64,000 bases of DNA from Armatimonadota bacterium (GCA_028871815.1 JAGWMJ010000002.1:248001-312000), one strand, 5' to 3'. Numbered from the stretch's first letter, positions 43,117-52,491 are shown. Notes: generated by a model from the sequence alone, not told the origin. Numbers and translations: made by a program.

Positions 43117-43827
43117 GGCGAAAGTATAACACAACCCGTGGCTCGCCGCGGCGGCCATGCCTCGTGCCGGCATCCAGTGTGGATGCCTCGTGGCAGGGCT
43201 GGAGGGGTCGGTTCCACCGGCCATTTTCTAAGGTGTGCGTTTGTCGGCGCCGCACATCAGGTGCAGGGGCTCAAGCGCCGGCGCCTCCGGCGGCGTTCCG
43301 GCTCTGCCCTGGTCTCAACTCACGGCTCCCGCCAGCCACAAGCAGCGATACTTGCGCACCGACAGCCTCAGCACGTCGCTCCGTTACCCAACCCGCCGCA
43401 TAGTCTCGCGGGCGTGATACGCCCTATATGTCGCGTACGTCTCATTTGTCCCATTCTCGGTACACACCAGGGTGAACCGCTCAAACGTGAGACGCAGGAA
43501 CCGACTTCAGGTTCGATTGCCGCCGGGCGGTCTCAGCGGGCATCGAATGTAGTGCCTGGTGATGACGAGCACCAGTCGTCACCACAACTGTCCGCCCGGC
43601 CGTCATCCCATACGTCTGCACGAAACGGCATCCCAAGCAGCGCCGAAGGATAGGCAGTTGATGGCGCCGGTTCCCGCCACCGCGCTCACCACTGCATAGT
43701 TCAACTCTTAAACGTCAAAACGAATTGAATAAGGTCGCTCGGATGGAACTTTCCGGCCCGAAAAACTCGCTTTACCTTTTGAGTGCAGGATGCGTGCGAA
43801 CATTTTCAGATAAAGGTCGTATACTCC
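43117..43827. other. Intergenic region upstream of the Rhs array, no gene recognised
   Basis: No frame on either strand looks coding. The longest + frame overlaps the permease on the other strand. The permease promoter (extended -10 at 43123-43131, minus strand) is at its left edge and the Rhs promoter at its right. GC-rich inverted segments around 43240-43330 (GCCGGCGCC-type) are weak. It may be decayed DNA left by rearrangement. Confidence 0.4.
43123..43131 (-). promoter_or_regulatory. Extended -10 promoter of the sugar permease operon
   Basis: On the minus strand the sequence reads TGT TATACT followed by exactly six bases and the ATG at 43116. The TG motif one base upstream of the hexamer makes it an extended -10, which needs no good -35. 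A leaderless mRNA is predicted. Confidence 0.5.
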
Positions 43828-43856
43828 TTGACAGGCTTTGTCTGGTAGATTATGAT
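43828..43856 (+). promoter_or_regulatory. Near-consensus promoter at the start of the Rhs array
   Basis: TTGACA (43828-43833), a 17-base spacer, and TATGAT (43851-43856). The predicted transcription start is around 43863, which lies downstream of the ATG at 43852 inside the -10 itself. Confidence 0.7.
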
Positions 43857-44892
43857 CACTTTGGTTTCGATTTCCTATACCGTGGATCCGGTTGGAAACC
43901 GCACCGGCGAAACGGTGGGAAGCACCTCTACAAGCTTCACGATGGATAACGACGATGAGCTTACGGCGACCAGCGGCGGATTCGCGAACAGCTATTCGTA
44001 CAACGCCAACGCCGAGCAGTCCGGCCGCACGCTGGCCGGCACGGCGTACACCCTCGCCTTCGATTACGACGGCCAGCTCAAGTCGATCACCCAAGGTACG
44101 GCGGTGACCGGTTTCGGCTACGACGCCCTGGGCCGCCGCGTGAGCCGCACCGCTTCAGGCACCACCACCTCCACGCAGTATGCCGGCGGCGCGCCGGTGA
44201 CGGAGATGCAGGGTTCAAGCTTCACCGCCGCGTACACCGTTGGTAACGACCTGCTGCGCCGCAACGGCGAGTATCCGGCATTCGATGGCCTCGGCTCCGC
44301 CCGCGCGGAAACCAACAGCTCCGGCACGGCCACCGCGACGCAGGATTTCGATGCCTTTGGAAACAGCATCGCGAGCAGCGGCTCGACTTCGAGCCCGTAC
44401 AACTTCGCCGGCGATTGGGCGTACCAGAGCAACGGCGACGCCGGGCTGCAGCACGTAGGAGCACGCTACTACGACCCGCAGGTCGGGCGATTCGCCAGCC
44501 GCGACAGCATGCTGGATCAGATGCCGTATGCGTATTGCGGTGGTGAGCCGAACGATTTCGTGGATCCGGAAGGGGACAAGCCGAGCTGGTGGCAGAAGCT
44601 GAAGGCGGCCGTCGGCATCGCCATAGGAATCGGGAGTGGTCGCCTACCGGGCGTGCCGGTTAACCTGGGCGGCGACCAACTCCCACCAGCGGTATCGATC
44701 GATCCGAAAAGGGAGGCCGGTAGCGGCCAAGGCTCTGGCGGCGATGGCGACGGGGATCCGCCGAGCGGCGGCGTGCCCTGGGCCGAGATCGGCGAGGGCG
44801 CTCTAGCGATTGGAGCTCTTGCTGTATTAGCGATCGTCATAGTCGGCAGCGGCGGCGCCGCCACGCCCGTACTGCTCTTGGCAGCCGGGTAG
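43852..44892 (+). CDS. Orphan Rhs C-terminal module A (core end plus membrane-type tip)
   Basis: 346 residues by the longest frame. Residues ~8-240 are YD-repeat/Rhs core: Y-T-V-D-P-V-G-N-R, F-D-Y-D-G-Q-L, G-Y-D-A-L-G-R-R-V, then G-A-R-Y-Y-D-P-Q-V-G-R-F, with the boundary N-D-F-V-D-P-E-G at codons ending 44574. Past it lies a unique ~105-residue tip: a G/P/S-rich linker and a hydrophobic helix at the end. The module lacks everything N-terminal of mid-core. The ATG at 43852 is inside the -10 box, so translation may start at TTG 43861 or further in. Core homology with modules B and C begins at ~43868. Companion gene 33 bases downstream. Confidence 0.75.
   Translation: MITLVSISYTVDPVGNRTGETVGSTSTSFTMDNDDELTATSGGFANSYSYNANAEQSGRTLAGTAYTLAFDYDGQLKSITQGTAVTGFGYDALGRRVSRTASGTTTSTQYAGGAPVTEMQGSSFTAAYTVGNDLLRRNGEYPAFDGLGSARAETNSSGTATATQDFDAFGNSIASSGSTSSPYNFAGDWAYQSNGDAGLQHVGARYYDPQVGRFASRDSMLDQMPYAYCGGEPNDFVDPEGDKPSWWQKLKAAVGIAIGIGSGRLPGVPVNLGGDQLPPAVSIDPKREAGSGQGSGGDGDGDPPSGGVPWAEIGEGALAIGALAVLAIVIVGSGGAATPVLLLAAG
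43868..44574 (+). repeat. Rhs core repeat, copy A
   Basis: DNA-level repeat with copies at 46169-46979 and 47799-48394. In a counted stretch, 43882-43980 matches 46288-46386 at 95 of 99 positions. Copy A lacks the first ~115 bases present in B and C. Confidence 0.85.
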
Positions 44893-44925
44893 ACGCGGTT
44901 GGCTCGTCGTGAGAGGGCGGGTAGC

Positions 44926-46098
44926 GTGGTCGCGGAAGACGGTCAGATGCGGGCGATCGCCGCCGAGGCATATCAACAATGCACGCGCTTGTTTGGCGCG
45001 CCGCGAGATGCGGGATGGGACATGGTCGTGGTCCCGGACCGACGCCGCGGGGCCACGGACTGGCAGCCACCAGATGTAAGGCGGAGGCCTTGGCGCCGCG
45101 ACTACCTGCTCATCATGCCGGTGCCATCTCCTCCCGACAGCGACGCGCGTACCTTGGTCGTGGAGCTTGTAGCGCAACGCGTGATGCTGATGAGGCTGCT
45201 GTGGCTTACCCGTGCGGACCTGCTTTGGACGCTTAGCGCGGCGGCCACGACGCTGGATTATTGCCGTCGGGGGGAGGGGATTTCGGCCGCCGAGATCGGC
45301 GCCTCGTGCCGCCTGATGATAATTGCACGCCGCGGCGTCGCGGTGCGAAAGGCACCGTCGGATCTCTGTACCTTCATCCCAGGCCGGCGACCCAGCCGGG
45401 AAGACGCGCTTGCGGCCCAAGTCGTGGGCGCAAGCTCGAGATGCGCTGCGTTGGCGCTACTCGCGCTAGTTGGACCGAAGCACACCTGCCGCCTTGCGCA
45501 GGAACGCGATGTTCGGCGGTGGCTGGACCCGCTGCCGTTATGGAAGCAGTCGCTTGCGTTAGAAGTGATCGCCACCGTCACTGCTGATTTCGCACGCCTT
45601 GGCGCTGGCCCGCCGGCCGGCATCCTTCCAACCGAGGATGCAGGTCCGGGCGCGTGGGCACGAGCGGCCACCGCGCTGGCCCTCGCTGCGGAGCATGCGC
45701 GCGCGCTGGCAGTGTGCCGGACTGCGCTCGAACTCTATCCGGACTGCCCAGCGCCGTGGCGGGTTATGGCAACTGTGTTTGACGACATCGGCCCCGTTGA
45801 CGAGGCCATCGCGTGTTCGCGCCGATACCTTGAAGCGCGCCCAACGAGTTGGCGCGTCCGCGCGCAGTTCGCGTACCAGCTTCTCCGTGCTTCGGAACCC
45901 GCCGCGGCGGCCGCCGAATTTCGCCGCACACTTACTCTACGCAACGACGCCTACGCGCGATACGGACTCGGCAAGGCCCTCTGGCAGTTGTCCGATCCCG
46001 ACGGTGCGCTGGCGCAGTGGCGGATCGCTGCGGCCAGCCCACAACACCGACCTGCCGCCGCCGCGCGCGGTGAGCTCGCGGCATACTCACGGGCCTGA
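44926..46098 (+). CDS. TPR-containing companion of Rhs module A, candidate immunity/chaperone
   Basis: About 390 residues from GTG 44926, with AGAGG upstream; ATG 44947 is the alternative. Residues 1-230 form a domain I do not recognise: an M-V-V-V-P-D segment, basic R-R-R-P-W-R-R-D-Y-L-L-I-M-P, and helices. Residues ~240-390 hold about four TPR-like helical pairs (A-L-A-V-C-R-T-A-L-E-L-Y-P-D-C-P-A-P-W, Y-L-E-A-R-P-T-S-W-R-V). Its place directly after the tip, on the same strand and inside the module, is where Rhs immunity genes normally sit. Size and TPR content suit a chaperone or cognate factor better than a small immunity protein. Function inferred from position. Confidence 0.6.
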   Translation: MVAEDGQMRAIAAEAYQQCTRLFGAPRDAGWDMVVVPDRRRGATDWQPPDVRRRPWRRDYLLIMPVPSPPDSDARTLVVELVAQRVMLMRLLWLTRADLLWTLSAAATTLDYCRRGEGISAAEIGASCRLMIIARRGVAVRKAPSDLCTFIPGRRPSREDALAAQVVGASSRCAALALLALVGPKHTCRLAQERDVRRWLDPLPLWKQSLALEVIATVTADFARLGAGPPAGILPTEDAGPGAWARAATALALAAEHARALAVCRTALELYPDCPAPWRVMATVFDDIGPVDEAIACSRRYLEARPTSWRVRAQFAYQLLRASEPAAAAAEFRRTLTLRNDAYARYGLGKALWQLSDPDGALAQWRIAAASPQHRPAAAARGELAAYSRA

Positions 46099-46137
46099 CC
46101 GGAGCCCATGTGAGAATGGTGAGTCGCTACGGGTCCC

Positions 46138-47318
46138 TTGCATTGGCGAGCACCGGACCGCATCGACGGCCGCACGACGCAGGTTACCGACGCCAACAGC
46201 AACGTGGTAAAATTCGGATATGACTGGGGCAGCCGCCTCACGTCGGAAACGCGAACCGGCTCGAACCCGTACTCCATTTCGTATACGGTGGATCCGGTAG
46301 GAAACCGCACCGGCGAAACGGTGGGAAGCACCTCTACAAGCTTCACGATGGATAACGACGATGAGCTTACATCGACTAGCGGCGGATTCTCGAACAGCGA
46401 TTCGTACAACGCCAACGGCGAGCAGACCGGCCGCACGCTGGCCGGCACGGCATACACCCTCGCCTTCGATTACGACGGCCAGCTCAAGTCGATCACACAG
46501 GGTACGGCGGTGACCGGTTTCGGCTATGACGCCCTGGGCCGCCGTGTGAGCCGCACCGCTTCAGGCACCACCACCTCCACGCAATACGCTGGCGGCGTGC
46601 CGGTGACCGAAATGCAGGGAAGCGCCTTCACGGCGGCTTACACCCTCGGCAACGACCTGCTCCGCCTAACGGCGCGTACCCCGCATTCGATGGCGTGGGA
46701 TCGGCACGCGCCGAAACCAACAGTTCCGGCACAGCCACGGTCACGCAGGATTTCGACGCGTTTGGAAACACGATCGCGAGCAGCGGATCTACCTCCAGCC
46801 CATACAACTTCGCCGGCGACTGGGCGTACCAGAGCGACGGGGACGCCGGGCTGCAGCACCTAGGAGCACGCTATTACGACCCGCAGGTCGGGCGGTTCGC
46901 CGGCCGCGACGGCATGCTGGACCAGATTCCGTACGCATATTGCGGAGGCGAGTCGAACGATTTGATGGATCCGAGCGGGTGTTGGCCTAAATGGCCGTTC
47001 TGGCGCGGAGTGATCGCCGGCGGAGCGGCCCTAATCTTGGTTGGCGTCGGTGGAGCGATCGTTGTACTAGCCCTCGGCGGCGGACTGATCGTAGGGACAA
47101 TCGTCGGGGCTGTGGGCGGGGCTACGGTTGGGGTGATTGGCTGGGGATGGGGTCTGGCCCGGACGGATCCCGACGGCGTCACTCCGGGGGGCCTTGAAGA
47201 GGCGGCGTTAAAGGGGGGCATCCTCGGCGCCTTGCGTGGCCTGCCATATGGCAGCTTTACCGCCCGCCTCGATCCGCCTCCGGTGCGATTGCCGTACGGG
47301 ATACAAGGGCCGTTCTGA
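46138..47318 (+). pseudogene. Orphan Rhs module B, core frameshifted, tip hydrophobic
   Basis: Core homology starts at ~46169 (R-T-T-Q-V-T-D-A-N-S-N). Compared with copy A, one base is missing close to 46666, in the codons after N-D-L-L-R. The frame from 46138 therefore runs off into another reading frame and ends at 46863, while the correct continuation from about 46667 is open to 47318. It resumes with G-S-A-R-A-E-T-N-S, reaches D-P-S-G at 46968-46979, then gives a ~112-residue tip with a long Gly-rich hydrophobic segment (~47 residues). Either GTG 46695 reinitiates the second part, or the gene is dead. It has no signal sequence. Confidence 0.75.
46169..46979 (+). repeat. Rhs core repeat, copy B
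   Basis: The longest copy. It includes the early part missing in A (R-T-T-Q-V-T-D through S-N-P-Y) and the middle part missing in C. Carries the one-base deletion near 46666. Confidence 0.8.
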
Positions 47319-47415
47319 TGCGAGCGCACGGCCAAATCCGCGCATGTTGCTGGCCCCGAAGCTGTGCGCAACCTGGTTGCGGTGGGGTGCTGCCCGGCTG
47401 GATCGGAGGGTTCCG

Positions 47416-47829
47416 ATGACGAGCGCCGTCGCACCGGCGGCATGTTCGGACATGATAGAGCATATCATCATCGCGTTCGGATTAGCCGCGCTCGGGTTAT
47501 TGTATACGATCATCGTCGGGCCGCCGTTAGCCGCTATCATGCGCCGGTCGCCCGACGGCGTTGACCGCGTGGTGCGGGGATTGATCGTCGGTCCCAGCTT
47601 CGCTCCCGGGCCGCTCGGGTTCATGGTACTCATCGGCACTTTCGACGACCGCGCCGCGTCACCGGAACGCTGGCTTGCCGCTGTGGGCTATCTCGTCATA
47701 TGGGGTATCACCGTTCGGTCCATTGCACGCCGTCGGCAACTCTGGTGCGAAATAATCGGCGTGCCGATCGGCGACACGGCGCCGGGTAGCGCGAGTCGGT
47801 CGCACGACGCAGGTCACGGATGCCAATAA
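47416..47829 (+). CDS. Three-helix membrane protein, candidate immunity protein of module B
   Basis: 137 residues from ATG 47416, with perfectly placed GGAGG. The frame is open to 47236 but only this start has a signal. Three transmembrane stretches: I-I-I-A-F-G-L-A-A-L-G-L-L-Y-T-I-I-V, L-I-V-G-P-S-F-A-P-G-P-L-G-F-M-V-L-I, and W-L-A-A-V-G-Y-L-V-I-W-G-I. It sits 97 bases after tip B, whose own sequence is hydrophobic. Multi-helix immunity proteins protecting against membrane-acting toxins are known in colicin-like systems. The last ~10 codons lie inside the start of core copy C, so its 3' end was altered by the rearrangement. Confidence 0.6.
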   Translation: MTSAVAPAACSDMIEHIIIAFGLAALGLLYTIIVGPPLAAIMRRSPDGVDRVVRGLIVGPSFAPGPLGFMVLIGTFDDRAASPERWLAAVGYLVIWGITVRSIARRRQLWCEIIGVPIGDTAPGSASRSHDAGHGCQ

Positions 47830-48400
47830 CAACGTGATAAAATTCGGCTACGACTGGGGCAGCCGCCTCACGTCGGAAACGCGGACCGGCTCAAACCCGT
47901 ACTCGATTTCGTATACGGTGGATCCGGTTGGAAACCGCACCGGCGAAACGGTGGGAACCGCCGCTACGAGTTTCACGATGGATAACGACGATGAGCTTAC
48001 GTCGACCAGCGGTGGATTCGCGAACAGCTATTCGTACAACGTCAACGCCGAGCAGTCCGGCCGCACGCTGGCCGGTACGGCGTACAGCCTCGCCTTCGAT
48101 TACGATGGCCCCGGCTCGGCACGCGCCGAAACCAATAGTTCCGGCACGGCCACGGTCACGCAGGATTTCAACGCGTTTCGAAGCACCATCGCCAGCAGCG
48201 GCTCGACGTCGAGCACGTACAACTTCGCCGGCGACTGGGCCTACCAGAGCAATGGCGACGCCGGGCTGCAGCACCTAGGAGCACGCTATTACGACCCGCA
48301 GGTCGGTCGGTTCACCAGCCGCGACAGCATGCTCGACCAGATACCGTACGCGTATTGCGGGGGCGAACCGAACGATTTCGTGAATCCGAGCGGGTGCGGT
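47799..48400 (+). pseudogene. Orphan Rhs module C, degenerate (internal deletion, no tip)
   Basis: The open frame from GTG 47834 reads V-I-K-F-G-Y-D-W-G-S-R-L-T-S-E-T-R-T, through the core, to N-P-S-G-C at 48383-48397 (the boundary is D-P-x-G in A and B, so Asp is changed to Asn). Compared with A it lacks exactly 216 bases (72 codons, between F-D-Y-D-G and G-S-A-R-A) at a short repeat. Beyond 48400 the frame continues through smpB without protein-like composition, so no tip remains. Start codon, signal and companion gene are missing. Likely a non-functional remnant. Confidence 0.75.
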
Positions 48401-48714
48401 GTGCTGGCGGCCAGGCGGCATCGGCGCCAGCGGCCGGTGGTCACGACGTTTAATCGATGCTCGGCGCCTTCGGGACAGCTATCCACAAGAGTCCCGGCCC
48501 TCGACGCACACGTTTTGGGTTCAGGCAGCGGTCCGCAGCGGCGCTTGCGTTGCCATAACGACGGAATACCGCTCCGCATTCCAAACTCCAGGATCGTCGT
48601 GCCCGGGTTAGCTTCGGCCTACGCCGCGGTTTGTAAGTCCGCCTTGCCTCGGCCGCGCATCTCATCCCAGCGGCGGCAGGTACACTCTCTAGCTGCTGCA
48701 CGCTGCCACGAGCC
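48401..48714. other. Stretch between Rhs remnant C and smpB, no gene recognised
   Basis: Downstream of the last core repeat no frame on either strand is protein-like, though the C frame itself stays open until 48853 by chance. TACACT at 48681-48686 could be the -10 of smpB. It could represent the scar of a lost tip and immunity gene. Confidence 0.4.
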
Positions 48715-49215
48715 ATGCTCACCTCAACCCTTCCTCAAAAGCCTCAAAAGCAGCCACCACGCGCTCCGGTTATACAGAACCGTCGGGCGCGCCATGAGTA
48801 CCATATCCACGACACGCTGGTTGCGGGCATCGTGCTGGCCGGCGTCGAGGTGAAGTCGCTGCGTGCCGGCCGCGCCAATCTCTCGGACGCCTTCGCTCGC
48901 GTCGAGCACGGCGAGGTATGGCTCTACAATTTGCACATCTCTCCGTGGGCGCAGGGCAGCCAGTGGAATGGCGAGCCCACGCGTCGGCGCAAACTGCTCC
49001 TACATCGCGCGCAGATCGAGCAGATCCGCGTTCAGAGTGAGCAGAAGGGACGGTCGATCGTGCCGCTCAAGATATTCTTTGACCGCGGCTTCGCAAAGCT
49101 GGAGATCGCCATCGCAGAGGGAAAGAAGCTCCACGACAAGCGTGAGTCGATTGCAGAGAAGGACCGGCTGCGGGAGAGCGCGCGCGAGGCGGCACGCGGA
49201 GGGCGCGATGGGTAG
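48715..49215 (+). CDS. smpB: SsrA-binding protein SmpB
   Basis: 166 residues. SmpB blocks: N-R-R-A-R-H-E-Y-H-I, A-G-I-V-L-A-G-V-E-V-K-S-L-R-A-G-R-A-N-L-S-D-A-F, R-R-R-K-L-L-L-H, and the C-terminal K-K-L-H-D-K-R-E-S-I-A-E-K-D with a basic tail. The N-terminal ~20 residues are Pro/Gln-rich and extra to the family. It binds tmRNA and helps release stalled ribosomes. tmRNA (ssrA) is not in this window. Five bases separate it from galK. Confidence 0.95.
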   Translation: MLTSTLPQKPQKQPPRAPVIQNRRARHEYHIHDTLVAGIVLAGVEVKSLRAGRANLSDAFARVEHGEVWLYNLHISPWAQGSQWNGEPTRRRKLLLHRAQIEQIRVQSEQKGRSIVPLKIFFDRGFAKLEIAIAEGKKLHDKRESIAEKDRLRESAREAARGGRDG

Positions 49216-50630: not shown

Positions 50631-50846
50631 ATGATATCCACCACCCTCAAGCCAGTCCGGCCACTTATCGTTGATCCGCCCCGCAACCTTGACGTCTGGG
50701 TGCTTTCACGGCGGATGACAGAATCCACGGGAGACGACCGGGCGCAGCGTCTCGGCGCCAAGCCATCGTACCGATCCCAGAGTCCCGTTCGTGAGTTTGC
50801 GCAGATTGTGTTCCGTCCACTGCGTATGGGTTTCGTCCGAGGATGA
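50631..50846 (+). CDS. 71-residue ORF duplicating the exosortase N-terminus
   Basis: Starts at ATG 50631 and ends with a four-base overlap (ATGA) with the exosortase start. Residues 15-33 (D-P-P-R-N-L-D-V-W-V-L-S-R-R-M-T-E-S-T) align without gaps, and at identical residue numbers, with D-P-V-P-V-P-D-A-W-V-L-A-R-R-L-T-D-S-P of the following exosortase. DNA similarity covers ~50673-50740 versus ~50885-50950. The remaining ~38 residues show no similarity and no membrane helix. No clear ribosome binding site. It may be a truncated duplicate or a separately kept regulatory peptide. Confidence 0.5.
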   Translation: MISTTLKPVRPLIVDPPRNLDVWVLSRRMTESTGDDRAQRLGAKPSYRSQSPVREFAQIVFRPLRMGFVRG

Positions 50847-51847
50847 CCGATGCTGCCGGTAGAGCGGCAACATCACTTCATCACGATCCGGTTCCGGTTC
50901 CCGACGCCTGGGTGCTTGCGCGGCGACTGACAGACTCGCCGCGCGAGCAGCCGGCCCACCCGGACGCTTTGTCCGGCCGGAGCCCTGGACCACGGGCTTC
51001 CCAGGCCCTTCTTCTTGGGGCGTTCGGCGGCTTGATGGCGCTGGCCTTCCTTCTGGCATTCCTACCATTTGCACCGGTCTGGAAGTCAGACCCGAATCTC
51101 ACATTTGGGCCGGCAGTGGTAGCAGCTGCGATTGTTGTGGCAATCATCCGGCGTCGCAGCATCGCAGCGGTCACCCAGCCGCATGGCGCGGGTCTGGTGG
51201 TTGCGGGCGGGGCAGCGCTCCTGTTCGTAATCGGATCGCTGACGGATGTGGATCCGGCCTGCGCCCTCGGTGCGGCGCTGCTTGCAATTGGAGGCTGCCT
51301 CTGGCTGTTTGGATGGCGATCGGCGGCCGCGGCATCCGGTCCAGCAGCCGTTGCGATGTTCGCCGTACCGTGGCCATCCACTCTGGTGGCTCTGCTGGCC
51401 AATCCGCTCCGAGGCGCCAGTGTAACCGGCGCGCTGCTCATGACACGTCTGGTCGGCGTCAAGGTGCTGCCGGCCGGCATCCTTCTCACGGTGCTGCCTG
51501 CACATGCGGGCGGCGAGCCATTTCGCCTTATCGTTGCCGATGCCTGCGATGGTTACGGCTCCCTGCTGGTTCTTGGCGCCATCGCCACAATGGTTGCATG
51601 TTTTACGCCCGGGTCGTGGTTCAACCGCGGCTTACTGATCGCGCTGGCGCTGCCGCTCGCCGTCATCACCAACGCCGTGCGGCTGGCCAATGTATTGGTG
51701 ATGTCTGCTTATGCCGGGCGGGCCGCCGCTATGCGCGTTCACGAACTTGAGCATCCGTTCCTGCTCCTGCTGGTCTGCCTCGTCCTGATGGGTGCTCGAT
51801 CGCTTTTGATCCGAGCGGATCGACGCCGAAGTGGCGGCCCGGAATGA
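50843..51847 (+). CDS. Exosortase/archaeosortase-family transpeptidase
   Basis: 334 residues with about eight transmembrane helices. An unusually long soluble N-terminus (~50 residues) shares the D-x-W-V-L-x-R-R motif with the upstream ORF. The catalytic triad of the family is in place: Cys235 in V-A-D-A-C-D-G-Y-G-S-L (where most members have A-C-S-G), Arg280 in I-T-N-A-V-R-L-A-N, and His300 or His304 in R-V-H-E-L-E-H. Exosortases cleave PEP-CTERM-type tails and attach proteins to surface polysaccharide. No PEP-CTERM substrate is encoded here. It overlaps epsI by four bases. Confidence 0.85.
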   Translation: MTDAAGRAATSLHHDPVPVPDAWVLARRLTDSPREQPAHPDALSGRSPGPRASQALLLGAFGGLMALAFLLAFLPFAPVWKSDPNLTFGPAVVAAAIVVAIIRRRSIAAVTQPHGAGLVVAGGAALLFVIGSLTDVDPACALGAALLAIGGCLWLFGWRSAAAASGPAAVAMFAVPWPSTLVALLANPLRGASVTGALLMTRLVGVKVLPAGILLTVLPAHAGGEPFRLIVADACDGYGSLLVLGAIATMVACFTPGSWFNRGLLIALALPLAVITNAVRLANVLVMSAYAGRAAAMRVHELEHPFLLLLVCLVLMGARSLLIRADRRRSGGPE

Positions 51848-52491
51848 CCACACGGCTCCTTGTCATCAATAGCCTTGCCGCCGTGATGCTGCTTGCCGCG
51901 TGGGCGATTCGACCTGGTAAGGGCCCTGTGGCTACCCGGCATCTCGCGTCACTGCATCTCGCGCTTCCCGGTTGGACAACGGCCACGGAAACGCTGCCGC
52001 CGTCGGAAGACGCCATGCTGCAGGCGCAAGACGTTCTGTTACAGGACTACACGCTGCCCGGCGATGGCTGGCTGGACTTCGCACTCATCGTTGGCAGCCG
52101 GCGCCAGTCGCTGCACCGTCCCGAGGCTTGCCTGGCCGGCGACGGCTGGGTGACGCTTCAAACCGAGCCGGTCACGCTCAAGCTGGACGGCCTCGACATT
52201 CACGCCGAGCGCTCGCTGCTCAACCGCGAAGGCCATCTGGCCCTGGTTACCTGGTTCTTCACCGATGGCTCGGTTACTACTCCGGGTCAGGTGCAGTTGC
52301 TGTTACGCCAGGTGCAGGCGCGGCTGGCAGGAGGCCGCGGTGATGCCGCTCTCGTGCGGGTGATGACGGCGGTTACCGGTAAATCGGGAGAGGCCGATGC
52401 GGTAACGCGAGCATTCCTGGCCCGCAACATACTCACCATTCTGCGCGCCGCCGGACCGCCGGCCGCCAACACCGCAGGAGCGAATCAATGA
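51844..52491 (+). CDS. Exosortase-associated EpsI-family protein (DUF3485)
   Basis: 215 residues. ATG 51844 overlaps the exosortase stop. A single N-terminal membrane anchor (residues ~5-22), then a periplasmic domain with the family core around H-R-P-E-A-C-L-A-G-D-G-W (His91, Cys96), equivalent to the H-S-P-E-x-C-Y-P-G motif, and L-V-T-W-F-F-T-D-G. EpsI proteins partner with exosortases in polysaccharide-linked sorting; their biochemical role is not settled. The stop overlaps the start of the GT2 gene. Confidence 0.85.
   Translation: MTTRLLVINSLAAVMLLAAWAIRPGKGPVATRHLASLHLALPGWTTATETLPPSEDAMLQAQDVLLQDYTLPGDGWLDFALIVGSRRQSLHRPEACLAGDGWVTLQTEPVTLKLDGLDIHAERSLLNREGHLALVTWFFTDGSVTTPGQVQLLLRQVQARLAGGRGDAALVRVMTAVTGKSGEADAVTRAFLARNILTILRAAGPPAANTAGANQ

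What the first reader, a model, noticed from the sequence alone, without database searches (positions are those of the whole stretch)
43828..48400. Tandem array of three orphan Rhs C-terminal modules without a parent rhs gene
Seen: three DNA-similar core ends (43868-44574, 46169-46979, 47799-48394) each reach the DPxG (NPxG in C) boundary and then diverge completely; A and B have unique tips and unique downstream genes. Known: Rhs toxin tips change by recombination with silent downstream tip/immunity cassettes that keep core homology (orphan Rhs-CT modules in Enterobacteria). Inference: this is such an array in a lineage where I know of little description, and here no full-length rhs gene is within about 43 kb upstream.
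Basis: partly seen in the sequence, partly recalled or inferred. Interest (0 to 1): 0.8.

Follow-up and report, generated by a model that had tools for sequence, protein, structure and literature searches.

The report
Promoter-headed Rhs toxin cassette arrays
This bacterium (apparently from the poorly studied phylum Armatimonadota) carries rows of interchangeable toxin-and-antidote cassettes at about eight places in its genome, but lacks the large delivery gene such cassettes normally belong to; instead most rows start with one short gene that has its own shared control region, so toxin swapping may run here without the usual delivery shell.

Summary
Three cores (A 43867-44574, B 46169-46979, C 47799-48394) are 84-95% identical over their ungapped blocks and diverge completely after DPEG/DPSG/NPSG. 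The reading as orphan Rhs-CT modules without a parent holds and grows. The genome has 44 Rhs-core matches (longest open frame with a core, 542 aa) and about 24 modules of this core family, mostly in tandem, at about eight loci. No full-length rhs was found; relatives have them.

It starts with a ~225-bp leader (promoter-like TTGACA-17-TATGAT, ATG at 43852) found at the first copy of seven arrays and in none of 250 other genomes of the phylum. B is frameshifted. C is a deletion relic of a cassette kept on another contig.

Whole core-tip-immunity cassettes recur between arrays, in head position in one and orphan position in another, while core identity (87±2.5%) does not follow tip identity: the footprint of recombination through the core. 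Best reading: promoter-bearing heads express a shell-less mini-Rhs toxin with its antidote, TA-like, and downstream copies are a swappable reserve. Expression, toxicity and swapping are inferred. This is a new variant of a known kind.

The parts
43626..43851 (+). Leader shared by the first copy of seven arrays (74-90% identical pairwise); absent from non-first copies
   Evidence: not found in 250 other genomes of the phylum
43828..43856 (+). Sigma-70-like promoter TTGACA-17-TATGAT (11 of 12); the -10 box contains the ATG of the head gene, so which is used is unsettled
   Evidence: exact hexamers at 4 of 7 heads, one further mismatch at the other three
43852..44892 (+). Head gene A: 346 aa, truncated Rhs core (242 aa) plus tip; no signal peptide by eye
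   Evidence: TIGR03696, 52.7 bits
43867..44574 (+). Core end A, homologous to B, C and more than 20 other places in the genome; ends DPEG
44575..44889 (+). Tip A: 105 aa, unique, hydrophobic C-terminal stretch (KD19 2.44)
   Evidence: no Pfam or NCBIfam match
44899..46098 (+). Gene after tip A, 399 aa, weak TPR signal; immunity candidate by position; only weak TPR-level matches in 31 genomes of the order
46169..46979 (+). Core end B, no leader, 1-nt frameshift near 46666; ends DPSG
46980..47315 (+). Tip B: 112 aa, glycine-rich, membrane-type (KD19 2.49)
47416..47829 (+). Gene after tip B: 137 aa, hydrophobic; immunity candidate by position, start codon by eye
   Evidence: no Pfam match
47799..48394 (+). 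Core end C, no leader, in-frame 216-nt deletion at about 48111; ends NPSG
48473..48564 (+). 92-bp relic (79%) of the end of the cassette still present on contig C9; tip and immunity gene of C are deleted

Best explanation
A dispersed, parentless family of Rhs tip/immunity cassettes. A module is [part of the Rhs core][variable tip after DPxG][downstream immunity gene]. Shown: modules are mostly in tandem at about eight loci; at seven of them (two joined only by contig ends) the first module carries a common leader with a promoter-like sequence and a start codon, later modules lack it and are 5'-truncated at varied points, often broken; whole cassettes recur between loci in head and non-head positions; core identity does not follow tip identity. 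Inferred: the head module is the expressed one and makes a short cytosolic Rhs-core/tip protein plus its antidote, like the internally expressed orphan Rhs pairs of Salmonella that act as toxin-antitoxin modules; the other modules are a reserve, and recombination through the ~700-bp core brings a new tip and antidote behind the leader. The F1 tips are mostly membrane-type. No full-length rhs and no T6SS sheath were found, so export of these tips as parts of a full Rhs shell is unlikely in this genome.
For: About 24 core copies in mostly tandem groups. Leader at 7 places, all at first copies; in the first eight head codons 7 of 8 variable sites are third positions. 7 of 7 heads unbroken over the sequence held, against 8 of 21 other copies with a frameshift or stop. 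Strong constraint on the core: dN/dS 0.07 among heads, 0.10 among others; private changes 26 syn/22 nonsyn in heads, 57/110 in others, Fisher p = 0.018. Tip and downstream gene co-recur: head vs orphan cassettes 88% over 1124 bp, 79% over 1458, 70% over 1046, and 77% over 798 within one array. Core identity of such pairs lies at the 23rd-82nd percentile of all pairs. PHI-type test p = 0.007. C shares the 216-nt core deletion and a 3' relic with a C9 cassette. Known toxin and antidote families in sister arrays: SitA6 tip followed by SitI6 immunity, Tox-REase-7, borderline Tlde1. No N-terminal rhs part in own genome; no T6SS sheath in 31 genomes of the order. Orphan Rhs pairs with internal promoters act as TA modules in Salmonella (PMC7043789).
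Against: No expression, toxicity or immunity data. The promoter-like -10 overlaps the ATG, so promoter and start cannot both be right as drawn. Tips A and B match no toxin family; most F1 tips are only hydrophobic. The immunity candidate of A is a 399-aa weak TPR protein, unusual for the role. Low dN/dS can be inherited from a time in full-length genes. The Fisher test treats related, recombining copies as independent and is partly driven by a few degenerate copies. Two heads are split across contig ends. The predicted head structure has low confidence (pLDDT 50).
Confidence: 0.5

Rival explanations
1. Graveyard: arrays are decaying remains of former full-length rhs loci, kept by drift; the common leader is a leftover of one fusion copied around the genome and nothing is expressed.
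For: 8 of 21 non-head copies broken; C is a relic; one array (C8) has no leader; leader and core relics at C1:551 kb are degenerate.
Against: All seven heads unbroken and the core strongly constrained; variable sites in the new start codons are mainly third positions; tip/immunity pairs stay together over large divergence.
Confidence: 0.2
2. Immunity bank: the leader serves to transcribe the downstream immunity genes against neighbours' toxins; cores and tips are baggage.
For: The immunity candidate of B remains open although its core is broken; orphan CdiI is made in E. coli EC93 although the toxin is not (PMC3150448).
Against: The core and tip of heads would not be expected to stay unbroken, nor the core constrained, if only immunity mattered.
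Confidence: 0.15
3. Ordinary silent orphans: a full-length parent with this core exists but is missing from the 22-contig, 98% complete assembly.
For: Contigs C1, C4, C5 and C20 end inside this repeat, and C7, C13, C15 inside another core family.
Against: The four F1 ends balance as two leader-bearing 5' halves and two 3' halves sharing an identical overlap, leaving no unexplained end for a parent; a long unique shell would assemble; the N-terminal part of a relative's rhs finds only weak repeat-level matches.
Confidence: 0.1
4. Mobile unit: leader plus head is or was a transposing element that seeded seven loci and then collected cassettes.
For: The leader has a shared 5' limit about 245 bp upstream of the core join at unrelated loci.
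Against: No transposase or terminal repeats seen at the window array; leader copies are 10-26% diverged, so no recent movement.
Confidence: 0.05

Closest known systems
Orphan rhs-CT/rhsI and cdiA-CT/cdiI modules of Enterobacteria (PMC3150448; recombination in Salmonella LT2, PMC3967940)
   Same: Tip fragments after a conserved boundary (DPxG/VENN), variable amounts of core homology upstream, linked immunity gene, tandem arrays, recombination via the core
   Different: No full-length main gene; about eight dispersed arrays in one genome; the first cassette of seven arrays has a common non-rhs leader and start codon
Internally expressed Rhs toxin-antitoxin modules of Salmonella Typhimurium (PMC7043789)
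   Same: A promoter directly upstream of a truncated Rhs core plus tip and antidote; a conserved promoter shared by different tips
   Different: There the promoter lies inside the rhs frame of a locus that keeps a full-length, T6SS-linked rhs; here the leader is not homologous to the rhs sequence preceding the join in other copies, and no delivery gene or T6SS sheath was found
Maf genomic islands of Neisseria (PMC4287609)
   Same: mafB-CT/mafI cassettes, some with a start codon, some silent; N. flavescens has CTs without a full-length mafB
   Different: Different core family (DUF1020), signal-peptide-dependent secretion, genus-specific islands
Full-length rhs with orphan in order relatives (e.g. 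L171, 1828-aa frame)
   Same: Same order, core end, DPxG-type boundary, tip and following orphan
   Different: Has the long YD shell and an N-terminal peptidase C39 domain that are missing here

Membership tests
Orphan rhs-CT/rhsI module array | Copies share core DNA up to DPxG and diverge after it | tested here: met
Orphan rhs-CT/rhsI module array | Tip and downstream gene inherited as a pair (toxin/immunity) | tested here: met
   co-recurring pairs, SitA6 tip with SitI6 gene in a sister array; not shown for tips A and B themselves
Orphan rhs-CT/rhsI module array | Lies downstream of a main full-length rhs gene | tested here: not met
Orphan rhs-CT/rhsI module array | Orphan tips lack translation start signals | tested here: inconclusive
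   core and tip of B are split by a frameshift and C has no tip, but A has a start codon with third-position variation
Orphan rhs-CT/rhsI module array | Tips are exchanged by homologous recombination in the core | tested here: inconclusive
   footprints only: PHI-type p = 0.007, core identity uncoupled from tip identity; no population data
Internally expressed Rhs type II TA module | Promoter directly upstream of a truncated core plus tip | tested here: inconclusive
   conserved promoter-like leader; no transcript data
Internally expressed Rhs type II TA module | Toxin neutralised by the co-expressed antidote inside the cell | not testable with these tools
   needs expression assays
Full-length Rhs effector | YD-repeat shell of about 1000 residues enclosing the tip | tested here: not met
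   residues 47-241 of A align to residues 952-1151 of the 1152-residue chain 8h8a; open frames with a core are at most 542 aa in the genome
Full-length Rhs effector | Associated delivery machine (T6SS tested) | tested here: not met
   no VipB/TssC sheath in own or 30 related genomes; other secretion routes not tested

The most novel reading that the evidence does not exclude
A tip-switching cassette system that runs entirely without an Rhs delivery shell: each array has one expression slot behind a common leader, cassettes move in and out of it by recombination within and between arrays, and the product is a cytosolic, membrane-acting mini-Rhs toxin with its antidote, a shuffled toxin-antitoxin repertoire rather than a weapon.
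Probability: 0.3. Interest if true: 0.78.

Novelty: new variant of a known kind. Interest (0 to 1): 0.57.

Why it matters
Orphan toxin cassettes are usually explained as spare ammunition for a full-length delivery gene. This genome is a natural test of that idea: it has the most Rhs-core matches of the 31 genomes of its order searched (44), yet no delivery gene was found. If heads are expressed, orphan modules are kept for an internal role (toxin-antitoxin, or antidote bank), as argued so far for a Salmonella locus. The shared leader gives a defined expression slot in which switching can be counted. No description of Rhs arrays in Armatimonadota was found in the searched library.

Tried and rejected
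Read the leader as a short coding gene (43725-43949): rejected by eye, because variation hits all codon positions and the C4 copy has a 1-nt insertion. Leader as structured RNA: no Rfam match and a covariation term near zero. Leader as a general genomic repeat: its 5' motif occurs only at heads in the 496 kb searched. AlphaFold model of head A: low confidence, so no fold search was made. Naming the organism by the core protein: no match; by glutamine synthetase the only Armatimonadota-labelled hit was a Chthonomonadia MAG at 70%, second after an unnamed MAG at 73%. Homologues of A's TPR gene next to another Rhs tip: none found, only weak TPR matches. The identical 117- and 216-nt core deletions in different copies were first taken as proof of tip exchange; for the 216-nt pair common descent of the whole cassette is simpler. 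Heads vs others in frameshifts alone (0/7 vs 8/21) is only suggestive.

Full report
Observation. The three core ends exist at the stated places. Repeat search returns exactly three copies for each half of the core, a 21-nt probe is found three times where 0.01 are expected, and the three-way alignment stops sharply at DPEG, DPSG and NPSG. A matches B at 95% and 87% in the two 300-nt blocks. C is shorter because it has lost 216 nt, in frame.

Genome context. The window is bases 248001-312000 of contig C2 of a 3.68-Mb, 22-contig, 98.3% complete genome. Its glutamine synthetase has its two best hits at 73% (an unnamed MAG) and 70% (a Chthonomonadia MAG, phylum Armatimonadota). The taxon is therefore probable, not proven. 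The core of A has 37 DNA matches and the Rhs-associated core 44. They fall into about five core families. Family F1, that of the window, makes about 24 modules at C2 (window), C1:294-298k, C1:712-717k, C9, C10, C12, C8 and C20, plus fragments.

No parent. The longest open frame with a core is 542 aa. The one long RHS-repeat protein (1061-aa frame at C5:177k) has no core. The N-terminal 1350 residues of a relative's full-length rhs find only weak repeat-level matches, and no YD-homologous stretch lies upstream of any F1 head in the sequence held. Four contig ends fall inside F1: two 5' halves with leader (C5 end, C4 start) and two 3' halves (C1 end, C20 start) that share an identical overlap. 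So these ends are explained by repeat collapse, and the arrays at C1:712-717k and C20 most likely own the C4 and C5 leaders. In the same order 29 of 31 genomes have Rhs cores, several with frames of 1000-2551 aa. One shows the classical layout, an 1828-aa frame followed by an orphan. Others have arrays with 3-9 kb held upstream and no long parent, so parentless arrays are not unique to this genome. The leader, as far as searched, is.

Leader and head. The first copy in seven places (window A, C1:298k, C9, C10, C12, C5 end, C4 start) is preceded by the same leader. Similarity reaches back about 245 bp from the core join, and the leader is absent from every non-first copy. It was not found in 250 other genomes of the phylum. 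It ends in TTGACA-17-TATGAT, the only promoter-like hit in the region. Sites this good occur about once per 90 kb of strand in the sequence held, and 4 of the 11 found are at heads. The in-frame ATG lies inside this -10 box. The first eight codons of the seven heads have eight variable sites, seven of them third positions, so the ATG is probably the start; then transcription must begin further upstream, or the hexamers are fortuitous. This point is open.

State of the copies. All seven heads are unbroken over the sequence held; 8 of 21 other copies have a frameshift or stop. Pairwise dN/dS is 0.07 among heads and 0.10 among the rest, so the core spent most of its history under constraint. Recent private changes differ: 26 synonymous and 22 nonsynonymous in heads, 57 and 110 elsewhere (p = 0.018). 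Because copies are related and recombine, and a few degenerate copies carry much of the excess, I treat this as suggestive.

Modules. Similar tips are followed by similar downstream genes: L021 head and an L026 non-head module (tip 68%, gene 70%), the two adjacent L022 modules (52%, 42%), L059 and L066 (97%, 81%), L056 and L057 (51%, 30%), plus the C1-end head and the last L021 module (83%, 82%) and the L026 head and an L022 module (44%, 52%). In three of these pairs the cassette is a head in one array and an orphan in another. Aligned as whole cassettes those three are 88, 79 and 70% identical. Yet the 3' core of these pairs is no closer than that of random pairs (23rd to 82nd percentile; all 153 pairs 87.1 ± 2.5%). 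Core and tip histories are thus uncoupled, as expected if cores recombine. A PHI-type test on seven full-length copies supports recombination (p = 0.007); the same test on the 3' core of 17 copies alone was not significant (p = 0.16). Window C is explained by the same comparison: it shares the 216-nt core deletion with a C9 module and keeps 92 bp of the end of that cassette, so its tip and antidote were deleted.

What the tips are. In other core families of the same genome tips match Tox-REase-7, SitA6/DUF2380 and (just under its cut-off) Tlde1, and the SitA6-like tip is followed by a SitI6-type immunity gene. That shows the arrays are polymorphic toxin arrays. F1 tips have no convincing family match; 12 of 20 contain a membrane-grade hydrophobic stretch, against 1 of 16 in the other families, and several antidote candidates are hydrophobic too.

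Mechanism. A covers only the last ~200 residues of an Rhs shell, has no signal peptide by eye, and no T6SS sheath gene was found in 31 genomes of the order. A delivered Rhs weapon is therefore unlikely here, though other secretion routes were not tested. The closest working precedent is Salmonella, where internal promoters express main and orphan Rhs tips with their antidotes as toxin-antitoxin modules (PMC7043789) and recombination moves an orphan tip onto the main gene (PMC3967940). I propose the head position is an expression slot and the rest a reserve. The leader, the modules and the cassette sharing are shown at sequence level; expression, toxicity, neutralisation and ongoing switching are inferred.

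Novelty. Orphan Rhs/CDI/Maf arrays are well known, including Neisseria flavescens with tips but no full-length mafB. New here are the genome-wide parentless scale, the shared non-rhs leader at array heads, the head/orphan exchange of cassettes between arrays, and the lineage, for which the searched library gave no description.

Noticed in passing
L059:10134-11507 (C14): Rhs tip of the SitA6/DUF2380 family directly followed by a SitI6-type double-CXXCG immunity gene, a pairing otherwise known to me from myxobacteria.
   Followed up: partly
L055:7501-10638 (C5:176.5-179.6k): 1045-aa protein with a twin-arginine-like N-terminus (by eye) and RHS repeats but no Rhs-associated core; the only long RHS-repeat protein in the genome.
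   Followed up: no
L064:7139-10737 (C1:97-101k): A two-module array of another core family starts overlapping the end of what looks by eye like a sugar-isomerase gene in a heptose-type operon, as if the head uses that operon's expression.
   Followed up: no
L059:9676-10114 and L066:8272-8712: A second core family (F5) also has two first copies sharing about 210 bp upstream of the core, missing from its second copy: the same leader logic with a different leader.
   Followed up: partly
L056:10094-10132 and L060:1099-1137: 39-bp near-perfect palindrome inside a HEAT-repeat immunity candidate, in both copies of a duplicated F2 module.
   Followed up: no
L172 (G017:C89) and L166 (G018:C43): Six tandem Rhs core ends in one array in two related genomes; in L172 the 7.6 kb held upstream show no parent.
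   Followed up: partly
L026:6834-7178 (C9): Transposase-like fragment (IS21-type by eye) after the last module of the C9 array.
   Followed up: no
window 48715-49215: The array ends about 150 bp before a gene that looks like smpB (by eye).
   Followed up: no
window 50843-52491: Adjacent exosortase-like and EpsI-like genes (by eye), suggesting an exosortase system in this genome.
   Followed up: no
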